The notes under the pieces were generated by a model. It worked only from the letters and a program-made list of their open reading frames with translations, was not told the origin of the DNA and did not search any database. A stretch of DNA of 64,000 bases. Source: an uncultured Prevotella sp. (GTDB lineage: Bacteria > Bacteroidota > Bacteroidia > Bacteroidales > Bacteroidaceae). The translations under genes were made by a program, and so were the position numbers. Positions 20,638 to 22,485 of the stretch are shown piece after piece. The stretch is from positions 62,001-126,000 of the forward strand of contig CAJOFE010000004.1 of assembly GCA_905233825.1 (NCBI GenBank), given 5' to 3'. Position 1 is the first letter of the stretch. Each line of letters starts with the position of its first letter.

Positions 20638-22485
20638 ATGGCAAAAGAAAATTTTGTACTAACACTACCGTTAAGGGTTGAGAAATGTCATGCTGACATT
20701 CTTGACAAGCGTTATGAGCTGTTGCGCCAGATGTACAACATGGTGCAACAGAAGTTAGTACGTCAATACATTTATTTTTCGCAGCAGAAGGCTTACAAGG
20801 CCTGTGAGAACTTTGAGCAAAAGAGAGAATTCTTTAATACACACCCTTTCCACTTTAAGGGTATCAAAGGGAAGGATGGTGAACTGAGTGACATCAAGTT
20901 TCCCTATACATATGAAAGTAGAAGCAGTTCATCAGGCAAGAGACCATCAGGCGGTATTTCTGACTATGTGTCAAAACTGTGGTCACACAGAATAGGCCAA
21001 GACAAGAATTTGGCTGATTTTGGTTTGAACGGTTCTATTATGGAAGAACTGGGTCTGCATATTATGAAGGCTTGGGAAGACCGTCTTTACAAATTCAAAA
21101 CAAAGTGTGTTTCCTTCAAGGGTTATGGCGAAATCAACTCATTCGGCTGTCGCTATCATAAAGGAAATTTCGCAGGGTTTAGCATCAACTTAGAAGAAGG
21201 TTTTATTACTTTTAATACAAACGGACGACGTGGTCAGTATGCTGATATAATCACACTTCCAATCGATTTTAGTCGTGAGAAAAGAGGCTATGCTGCAGAA
21301 GCCCTCAAAGGTGGTGTTGACAGCCTGAGAAAGTTGGTTATCGTCAGGAGATGCATACGAGGCAGAAACAAATACTATCTGCAACTGTCCATTGGTGGCG
21401 AAAAGCCACAAAAGGGACGCACCTTGGGTATGGGCAACGTGGGCATCGACATTGGCCCATCTACGATTGCCACATCTTCTCTTCAAGGCGTTCACTTTGA
21501 CAAAATGGCCGACAAGTGCGACAATATTGAGCACGAACTTTATCTTATAAACCGCAAGATTGACAGAAGTCGCAGGGCCAACAATCCTGATAACTATAAT
21601 CCAAACGGTACCATTAAGCGTGGCGTACGTTTGGTTTGGAAAAAAGACAAAGATGTCAAGAGATACGCCTCGCTGAAACAGAAAAGAAAGGAGTTGTATC
21701 GCATGCAGGCTGAAACCAGAAAGCAGCAGCATCTGGAGATGGCGAATGCCATGCTATCGCAGGGCGATACGTTCATTGTGGAGAACAACCCCATCGACGC
21801 TTGGGTACGTAGAGCCAAAGAAACAAGAAAGACTAAGACGGGAAAGTATCGAAGCAAAAAACGTTATGGTAAGTCTGTAGCCAATCACGCTCCAGCTATG
21901 TTTATTACCATTCTTGAGAACAAAGTCAAGTCTCTTGGTGGTAAGTTTCATAAGGTGGATCCAAGTTACGCCGCCACGCAATTCGACTTTACGAATGGTG
22001 TGTTTACAAAGCATGAGGTTAGCGAGCGTAGTATCACACTAAGCAATGGTCGCACTCATCAGCGTGATATGCTTTCTGCATTTAATCTTCAGCACGCAAG
22101 GCTGGAAGTAGAGAAAGCAAAAAGCAGAGATAAAGAAAAGAAAGTAGAAAGCTACGATATAGAACAAATGCAGGCTGACTGTCCTATCTTCTGCCGACTG
22201 GAAACAGCAGAGCAGAAACGATTCAAGGATGCTCGGCGCAACGAACGTGATGCACTATTCTTTGTTGGTGCATTTGCAAAGGAATTGAGGCACGAGCCTC
22301 AGGAAGAAACGGTCGCTAATCGCCACAATGGTGGCGTTGGCCGAAAACATTGTAATACTCTGTGTACAGAAAACGCAAAAATAACAGGTAGCGGACTTGT
22401 CCGTGAGAGTATAGCGCGAGTTTCTGAAGCCCCAGAAGAATGCTATCATGCTGGTCATCAAGCCATTATTCTTGATGGGCTGTAA
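20638..22485 (+). CDS. TnpB/Cas12-like RuvC RNA-guided nuclease, zinc finger apparently absent
   Basis: Split RuvC motifs: VGIDIGPSTIA (D, codon 21448), DTFIVENNPIDAW (E, codon 21781), RDMLSAFNLQHA (D, codon 22066). No CxxC...CxxC between RuvC-II and RuvC-III. Other TnpB-like blocks: NRKIDRSRRANNPDNYNPNGTIKRG, SKKRYGKSVANHAPAM. Confidence 0.9.
   Translation: MAKENFVLTLPLRVEKCHADILDKRYELLRQMYNMVQQKLVRQYIYFSQQKAYKACENFEQKREFFNTHPFHFKGIKGKDGELSDIKFPYTYESRSSSSGKRPSGGISDYVSKLWSHRIGQDKNLADFGLNGSIMEELGLHIMKAWEDRLYKFKTKCVSFKGYGEINSFGCRYHKGNFAGFSINLEEGFITFNTNGRRGQYADIITLPIDFSREKRGYAAEALKGGVDSLRKLVIVRRCIRGRNKYYLQLSIGGEKPQKGRTLGMGNVGIDIGPSTIATSSLQGVHFDKMADKCDNIEHELYLINRKIDRSRRANNPDNYNPNGTIKRGVRLVWKKDKDVKRYASLKQKRKELYRMQAETRKQQHLEMANAMLSQGDTFIVENNPIDAWVRRAKETRKTKTGKYRSKKRYGKSVANHAPAMFITILENKVKSLGGKFHKVDPSYAATQFDFTNGVFTKHEVSERSITLSNGRTHQRDMLSAFNLQHARLEVEKAKSRDKEKKVESYDIEQMQADCPIFCRLETAEQKRFKDARRNERDALFFVGAFAKELRHEPQEETVANRHNGGVGRKHCNTLCTENAKITGSGLVRESIARVSEAPEECYHAGHQAIILDGL
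22276..22478 (+). ncRNA. Candidate omegaRNA/tracrRNA-like structured region overlapping the 3' end of the nuclease ORF
   Basis: Consecutive perfect hairpins: TGAGGC-ACGA-GCCTCA (22286-22301), CGCCAC-AATG-GTGGCG (22321-22336), GCGGA-CTTG-TCCGT (22391-22404), CATCAAG-ccattatt-CTTGATG (22456-22477, 1 nt before repeat 1). Confidence 0.45.

What the first reader, a model, noticed from the sequence alone, without database searches (positions are those of the whole stretch)
22276..22478. Run of four stable hairpins within the 3' end of the nuclease ORF, directly abutting repeat 1
Perfect stems at 22286-22301, 22321-22336, 22391-22404 and 22456-22477, the last ending 1 nt before repeat 1. The protein tail after RuvC-III (about 22230 onwards, RRNERDALFFVG...AIILDGL) does not resemble a conserved TnpB end. 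The DNA may therefore be selected as structured RNA rather than protein. Short complementarity to the repeat exists: ttgaggc at 22285 with gcctcaa, and ttgtaa at 22350 with ttacaa.
Basis: partly seen in the sequence, partly recalled or inferred. Interest (0 to 1): 0.75.

Follow-up and report, generated by a model that had tools for sequence, protein, structure and literature searches.

The report
CRISPR tracrRNA hidden inside nuclease gene
The hairpins are the helper RNA (tracrRNA) of a small CRISPR-Cas12-type immune system, and in this bacterium and its closest kin that RNA lies inside the last part of the nuclease's own gene, whose stop codon sits in the first CRISPR repeat.

Summary
In detail: all four stems are present as described. 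Folding energy alone does not beat synonymous redraws, but comparison with relatives identifies the element.

The 615-aa ORF is a TnpB-derived, compact type V (Cas12-like) effector, and the two 36-nt repeats are a minimal CRISPR array. A genome scan found 35 related loci in rumen and gut Bacteroidales, 31 with arrays. The RNA lies beside the first repeat in every layout: inside the ORF (window, L006-L009), between ORF and array, or upstream of the ORF.

It is a tracrRNA. A fixed anti-repeat (22441-22447) covaries with the repeat, scaffold stems covary, and a pseudoknot joins it to the repeat's 3' end. A covariance model of one element finds matches just downstream of IS605-type TnpB genes, so tracrRNA plus repeat looks like a split TnpB guide RNA.

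The amino-acid tail (about residues 546-615) evolves as RNA and is predicted disordered. The ORF still stays open to a TAA inside repeat 1 in all five embedded loci.

The parts
20611..20619 (+). Bacteroidota-type -7 promoter box (TAnnTTTG, here TATCTTTG), 26 nt before the effector ATG; no such box before the tracrRNA. The box itself is 8 nt, coordinates given to within a base
   Evidence: a box is 26-37 nt before the effector ATG in all 13 downstream-layout loci; none of the five embedded loci has one in the stretch 330-150 nt before repeat 1
20638..22485 (+). Compact TnpB-derived type V (Cas12-like) effector ORF, 615 aa; RuvC D271, E382, D477 invariant in 32 members; zinc-finger cysteines absent
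22273..22482 (+). RNA-encoded C-terminal tail (about residues 546-615), predicted disordered, evolves as RNA
22286..22301 (+). tracrRNA hairpin 1 (GAGG..CCTC); kept in 3 of 4 embedded lineages, deleted in L009
22310..22343 (+). tracrRNA bulged hairpin: outer stem 22310-22315/22338-22343, CTAAT bulge 22316-22320, inner stem 22321-22326/22331-22336; 100% of cells paired, 8 of 12 pairs with changes on both sides
22350..22356 (+). Pseudoknot strand TTGTAAT, complementary to repeat nt 29-35 (22507-22513)
22367..22426 (+). tracrRNA central helix: CAGAAA/TTTCTG (22367-22372/22421-22426) and CGC/GCG (22374-22376/22416-22418); 6 of 9 pairs with changes on both sides
22391..22404 (+). tracrRNA stem 3 (GCGGAC/GTCCGT), compensatory changes; in L009 extended by 12 nt that keep both stem and frame
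22441..22449 (+). Anti-repeat (TGCTATC, extended TGCTATCAT) pairing with repeat nt 22-28 (22500-22506)
22479..22514 (+). CRISPR repeat 1; contains the effector stop codon TAA at 22483-22485
22515..22544 (+). Spacer 1 (30 nt); no exact match in IMG/VR
22545..22580 (+). CRISPR repeat 2 (last)
22656..22688 (+). Likely intrinsic terminator after the array (AAAGGGAGCC CGTC GGTTCCCTTTCTTATT)
   Evidence: fold of 22640-22700, -26.5 kcal/mol

Best explanation
The region is the tracrRNA of a compact, TnpB-derived type V CRISPR-Cas system. Promoter boxes and layout suggest one transcript that starts before the effector and runs through effector, tracrRNA and array (inferred). The tracrRNA part folds into a scaffold (bulged hairpin, central helix, stem 3) that binds the effector (inferred from TnpB and Cas12f). 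Its anti-repeat at 22441-22449 pairs with the 3' half of each repeat, and its TTGTAAT strand makes a pseudoknot with the repeat's 3' end next to the spacer. The pair therefore rebuilds the single guide RNA (omegaRNA/reRNA) of the TnpB ancestor, from which it arose by a split in the loop of the terminal hairpin, followed by multiplication of the 3' half into an array. The effector with this dual guide would cut DNA that matches the spacer (inferred from the intact RuvC triad). In the window's clade the effector stop codon was lost, so the ORF runs through the whole tracrRNA to a TAA inside repeat 1. The resulting tail of about 70 aa is a by-product of RNA-coding DNA. Shown here: CRISPR arrays, anti-repeat and scaffold covariation, RNA-like evolution of the tail, homology of one element to RNA next to IS605 TnpBs, a single origin of the embedding. 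Inferred: transcription, processing, protein binding, DNA cleavage.
For: CRISPR arrays of 36-nt repeats and 29-30-nt spacers in 31 of the 35 loci found. Anti-repeat at a fixed offset (37-42 nt before repeat 1) pairs 6.53 of 7 with its own repeat against 4.82 with others, 0 of 20000 permutations as good, and 22 double-changed cells against 9.4 in shuffles. Bulged hairpin: 100% of cells paired, 8 of 12 pairs with changes on both sides, 0 of 500 shuffles reach the covariation score. Whole scaffold of clade A: 93.4% paired, 11 pairs with double changes. Pseudoknot: 0 of 2000 permutations reach observed. A model built from CRISPR loci only finds the element just after the TnpB stop in L041 (E 2.8e-5) and L046 (8.8e-5), with a third-ranked but non-significant hit after L045 (E 2.7). 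Tail: flat codon positions and suppressed synonymous change; pLDDT about 24-35. Tree: embedded clade one origin, 97/93; 3' position of the RNA shared with the TnpB outgroup. Promoter boxes consistent with one transcript per locus. Two spacers of relative L027 match a phage contig with 0 and 1 mismatches.
Against: No RNA or activity data. Energy alone does not single out the tail. For the window itself the anti-repeat duplex includes two G-U pairs and is no stronger than with other repeats (12 of 18 better). In the embedded clade the pseudoknot strand lies 3' of the bulged hairpin, whereas in the other layouts and in TnpB it lies in the loop of hairpin 1, and it does not covary within that clade. 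Stem 4 is not conserved. The anti-repeat columns were anchored by sequence motifs chosen after the pairing had been seen. The window has only one spacer, with no protospacer found, and its genome lacks Cas1.
Confidence: 0.92

Rival explanations
1. The tail is a functional protein domain and the hairpins are a by-product of its codons.
For: The frame is open to the same stop in five loci, and the tail indels seen are multiples of three. If the changed sites are randomised, the frame would stay open in 4-29% of trials per pair, so openness may be selected.
Against: No third-position excess in the tail in any pair; pN/pS 0.53-0.82 against body medians of 0.13-0.36. The tail is absent from all sister clades. 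Predicted disordered. The same RNA is non-coding in the other layouts.
Confidence: 0.04
2. Dual use: the tail is mainly RNA, but its translation matters, for example because ribosome transit over the tracrRNA and into repeat 1 controls when the transcript becomes guide RNA.
For: Frame kept open to a stop inside repeat 1 in five loci; a reversion to the ancestral short protein needs only one stop and is not seen. The five embedded loci show no separate promoter box before the tracrRNA, so guide and protein come from the same coding region.
Against: Five loci of one clade, of which L007 and L008 are near-identical; the openness statistic is modest. The sister clades work without it. No expression data.
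Confidence: 0.25
3. The hairpins are a 3' mRNA stability element, terminator or attenuator unrelated to guide RNA.
For: They lie at the 3' end of an ORF and upstream of repeats.
Against: The anti-repeat and pseudoknot covary with the repeat. In 17 layout-B loci the element is upstream of the ORF together with the array. A separate terminator hairpin follows the array.
Confidence: 0.02
4. The repeats and hairpins are the right end of an IS605-type element, and the nuclease is an ordinary TnpB with a single omegaRNA.
For: The protein matches the guided_TnpB model weakly (52 bits, cut-off 100); nearest non-CRISPR kin are IS605 TnpBs; one element of the RNA is homologous to their reRNA.
Against: Single copy in the genome. 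Arrays of up to 41 repeats with different spacers in relatives. The TnpB kin examined have no such repeats.
Confidence: 0.02

Closest known systems
TnpB with omegaRNA/reRNA (IS200/IS605), in particular ISDra2 TnpB (PMC10097598)
   Same: RNA-guided RuvC nuclease. [quoted passage not shown] Terminal hairpin plus pseudoknot next to the guide.
   Different: Here the RNA is split: anti-repeat in the tracrRNA, and the 3' half repeated in a CRISPR array. No TnpA was seen among the neighbouring ORFs. The nearest TnpB kin (L041, L044-L047) end before the reRNA, so the overlap here looks re-evolved.
TranC systems such as LaTranC (PDB 9jfo, 9jfq; Cell 2025, from own knowledge, paper not held)
   Same: TnpB-derived effector with tracrRNA and crRNA made by splitting a reRNA.
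   Different: Only RuvC-region similarity to LaTranC (E 5e-4). Different hosts. Whether this family is one of the published TranC clades could not be checked. ORF read-through into repeat 1 is not something I know to be described for TranC.
Cas12f (subtype V-F)
   Same: Compact effector with tracrRNA; two repeat:anti-repeat contacts, a pseudoknot (R:AR1) and a stem (R:AR2) (PMC10097598).
   Different: Weak profile hits only (E 4.5e-7 for the window). Zinc-finger cysteines absent.
Cas12n (PDB 9j09, RdCas12n)
   Same: Best sequence-profile hit among solved structures (E 1.4e-5); TnpB-like, works with an sgRNA.
   Different: Similarity limited to the RuvC region.
CRISPRCas_38, type II-C tracrRNA that overlaps the start of predicted cas9 (PMC9067536)
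   Same: A tracrRNA that partly or wholly overlaps a predicted effector ORF.
   Different: Type II, 5' end, 50 of 599 places, ascribed by its authors to misassigned start codons. Here the overlap is at the 3' end and is fixed by the stop codon.

Membership tests
Class 2 type V CRISPR-Cas | Single effector with one RuvC domain and D/E/D triad, no HNH | tested here: met
   D271, E382 and D477 invariant in 32 members; PF07282 (sub-cutoff) and Cas12/TnpB folds
Class 2 type V CRISPR-Cas | CRISPR array beside the effector | tested here: met
   31 of 35 loci; the other four are truncated at contig ends (L016, L033, L038) or hold only a gene fragment (L040)
Class 2 type V CRISPR-Cas | Spacers derived from phages or plasmids | tested here: inconclusive
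   Two spacers of relative L027 match a phage contig (0 and 1 mismatch); the window's only spacer has no exact match
Class 2 type V CRISPR-Cas | RNA-guided interference | not testable with these tools
   needs a bench assay
tracrRNA | Anti-repeat complementary to the repeat and covarying with it | tested here: met
tracrRNA | Expressed and bound to the effector | not testable with these tools
   no RNA data
Cas12f (V-F) | Match to Cas12f profiles over the effector | tested here: inconclusive
   E 4.5e-7, 27 bits, C-terminal half only
Cas12f (V-F) | CxxC zinc finger in the target-nucleic-acid-binding domain | tested here: not met
   no CxxC pair before RuvC-III in the six members looked at
IS605 TnpB | Score above the guided_TnpB cut-off | tested here: not met
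   52.1 bits against 100 for the window protein
IS605 TnpB | Transposon context (TnpA, ends, copies) | tested here: inconclusive
   single copy in the genome; no TnpA recognised by eye among the ORFs listed around it, no TnpA profile search made
TranC | tracrRNA and crRNA derived from a split reRNA | tested here: met
   one tracrRNA element hits RNA beside IS605 TnpBs; anti-repeat, AGTAC and pseudoknot motifs shared with their terminal hairpin
TranC | Place inside a published TranC clade | not testable with these tools
   paper and sequences not held

The most novel reading that the evidence does not exclude
A translated tracrRNA with a purpose: the whole functional guide scaffold is coding sequence, the effector's stop codon is supplied by the first CRISPR repeat, and ribosome transit over the scaffold decides whether a transcript serves as mRNA or is processed into guide RNA, so that protein and guide supply are coupled in cis.
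Probability: 0.2. Interest if true: 0.85.

Novelty: new variant of a known kind. Interest (0 to 1): 0.72.

Why it matters
The family preserves, in a few dozen genomes, steps in the passage from a transposon nuclease with one guide RNA to a CRISPR system with two. One RNA element can be traced from the 3' flank of IS605 TnpB genes to a tracrRNA that sits downstream, inside or upstream of the effector ORF. The embedded layout has a practical side: codon optimisation of the gene, or trimming of its disordered tail, would destroy the tracrRNA, and a tracrRNA search limited to intergenic DNA would miss it. It also poses a testable question: how one stretch of RNA can be read by ribosomes and still fold into a guide.

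Tried and rejected
Energy test against synonymous redraws: not significant (134 of 500; L006 59 of 300, L007 131 of 300, L009 175 of 300), so it is not used as evidence. Free duplex search for the anti-repeat over 67 nt: noisy, and the window's own pair was not the best; replaced by the fixed-column test. MAFFT alignment of clades A and B misplaces the bulged hairpin, so the clades were folded apart. Model R1 does not find the clade B hairpin, whose inner part has diverged. No Rfam family matches. phmmer of the single protein against the PDB: nothing. Spacer of the window in IMG/VR: nothing. A degenerate pattern from two similar spacers hit L042, but the full spacers do not match well there (6 mismatches), so it is not counted. 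PAM not resolved from two overlapping protospacers. L005, first taken as a stand-alone RNA, is a decayed relic of an embedded locus: the frame is broken, the central helix is lost, but the end reads ..IILDEL*. The TranC paper and the PNAS 2023 and CRISPR J 2025 surveys are not held, so prior description of this exact family could not be excluded.

Full report
WHAT IS THERE. The ORF 20638-22485 (615 aa from ATG) ends in TAA at 22483-22485, inside the first of two exact repeats (22479-22514 and 22545-22580). By energy alone the tail is unremarkable: 134 of 500 redraws that keep the protein fold at least as well. The case therefore rests on relatives.

THE PROTEIN. Profiles place it near TnpB and compact Cas12s but below any cut-off: guided_TnpB 52.1 bits against 100, PADLOC Cas12u2 and Cas12f weak, PF07282 sub-cutoff. 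A profile of 32 members hits RdCas12n (E 1.4e-5), LaTranC (5e-4) and a Cas12m (1.2e-3) in the RuvC part only. The predicted structure (mean pLDDT 69.6) matches TnpB, Cas12f, Cas12p and LaTranC folds. The RuvC triad D271, E382, D477 is invariant, and zinc-finger cysteines are absent from the members looked at. It is single copy, and Cas1 was not found in the genome, which is about 93% complete.

RELATIVES. Five of 198 kin genomes gave hits, counting the window's own genome in the table separately and including one that holds only the tail (L005). One scan of species genomes gave 35 loci, nearly all from rumen and gut Bacteroidales; 31 have arrays of 36-nt repeats and mostly 29-30-nt spacers, up to 41 repeats in L027. 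There are four layouts. A-embedded: window, L006-L009, the ORF runs into repeat 1 and ends Asp/Gly-Leu-stop (..DGL*). A-separate: L010, L012, L014, the ORF ends IGAF(R)K*, then the RNA, then the array. C: L004, L034-L037 and L039 (L039 is the same contig as L004), also downstream and separate. B: 17 loci in the tree, with RNA and array upstream of the ORF. The tree with IS605 TnpBs as outgroup puts C first, then A-embedded (one origin, 97/93) against A-separate plus B (B one origin, 100/100; the fork joining A-separate with B has only 81/81). The outgroup TnpBs carry their reRNA downstream of the stop codon, so the 3' position is most simply ancestral and the embedding derived.

RNA, NOT PROTEIN. 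Between window and L006 the body has 87, 45 and 256 changes at codon positions 1, 2 and 3, and pS 0.74, pN 0.11. The tail has 11, 14 and 15, with pS 0.27 and pN 0.17. Window-L007, window-L009 and the other pairs behave alike, with tail pN/pS 0.53-0.82 against body medians of 0.13-0.36. The tail has pLDDT of about 24-35.

THE STRUCTURE. In clade A a bulged hairpin, a central helix and stem 3 are 93.4% paired, 11 of 27 pairs have changes on both sides, and no shuffle of 500 reaches the covariation score. The bulged hairpin has the same plan in clades A and C (outer stem, YTAAT-like bulge, inner stem, 4-nt loop, 1 nt, outer stem): all cells paired, 8 of 12 pairs with double changes. Shuffles do not remove relatedness, but slid partners fall to 24-63% paired.

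THE ANTI-REPEAT. At 38 nt before repeat 1 (37-42 in all clades), seven bases pair with repeat positions 22-28: 6.53 of 7 for cognate pairs, 4.82 for others, 0 of 20000 permutations as good; 22 double-changed cells against 9.4 in shuffles. The columns were anchored by motifs after the pairing had been noticed, which is a limitation. In the window the strand is 22441-22447 and the partner 22500-22506.

THE PSEUDOKNOT. The end of the repeat next to the spacer pairs with a second tracrRNA strand: TTGTAAT (22350-22356) with GTTACAA (22507-22513) in the window. Across 17 CRISPR and TnpB loci, 0 of 2000 permutations reach the observed pairing. One TnpB locus (L044) pairs at a different place and supports the idea least. 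In the embedded clade the strand lies 3' of the bulged hairpin; in the other layouts and in TnpB it lies in hairpin 1. A guide-PK-stem plan is reported as common to omegaRNA and Cas12 guides, and a split of omegaRNA was proposed as origin of tracrRNA plus crRNA (PMC10097598).

LINK TO TnpB. Model R1, built from CRISPR loci only, finds its element 30-45 nt after the TnpB stop in L041 (E 2.8e-5) and L046 (8.8e-5); the third hit, also just downstream of TnpB (L045), is not significant (E 2.7). Short motifs around the terminal hairpin (AGTAC, then ACCCC, then GGG..TCAGA before the guide) recur as AGTAC, anti-repeat, and repeat end in clade C; this part is by eye.

EXPRESSION, INFERRED. A TAnnTTTG box (Bacteroidota -7 type, from general knowledge) lies 26-37 nt before the effector ATG in all 13 A and C loci. 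In the stretch 330-150 nt before repeat 1 there is none in 11 of them and one in L012 and in L014, about 242 nt before the repeat. In B it lies 14-17 nt before the tracrRNA in 13 of 14 loci and none is within 60 nt of the ATG. Each locus thus looks like one transcript. TnpB is known to make omegaRNA from its own mRNA (PMC10278001).

WHY IS THE FRAME OPEN? If changed sites are randomised, the frame stays open in 4-29% of trials per pair, and the indels seen in the tail alignment are multiples of three, including a 12-nt insertion in L009 that lengthens stem 3. This hints at selection for an open frame, but the sample is one clade. ISDra2 TnpB shows a comparable overlap: its C-terminal residues 376-408, which overlap the omegaRNA, are disordered and not needed for cleavage (PMC10097598).

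VERDICT. The hairpins belong to a tracrRNA embedded in the effector gene of a TnpB-derived type V CRISPR family. The kind (split omegaRNA, compact Cas12 with tracrRNA) is known. The family could not be matched to a named subtype here, about 50 independent TnpB-to-CRISPR events are already inferred (PMC12669027), and the complete embedding with the stop codon inside repeat 1 is, to my knowledge, undescribed.

Noticed in passing
L005:1411-1743 (- strand): Decayed relic of an embedded locus (tracrRNA-like sequence, one degenerate repeat, no nuclease) directly after a helicase-like ORF that by eye looks like a type III restriction subunit; frame broken, end still reads ..IILDEL*.
   Followed up: partly
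L027:322-about 3000: The longest array of the family, 41 repeats, upstream of the effector ORF; spacers 1 and 4 overlap by 22 nt and match the same phage contig (L043), with 1 and 0 mismatches.
   Followed up: partly
L002, L003, L011, L013-L032 (layout B, except L012 and L014, which are layout A-separate): The whole tracrRNA and array have moved upstream of the effector, which follows directly after the last degenerate repeat; one origin in the tree.
   Followed up: yes
L041:4470-4503 and L046:3015-3048: TnpB genes on a viral contig and on a Cetobacterium plasmid carry the same bulged hairpin just downstream as the CRISPR tracrRNAs.
   Followed up: yes
window 19720-20208: Intergenic stretch with nested inverted repeats around CACCTCCC / GGGAGGTG, plus a 26-nt hairpin at 20150-20208; nature unknown.
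   Followed up: no
G000 (whole genome): No Cas1 found in the genome, so spacer uptake, if it still happens, would need another source; the genome is about 93% complete.
   Followed up: partly
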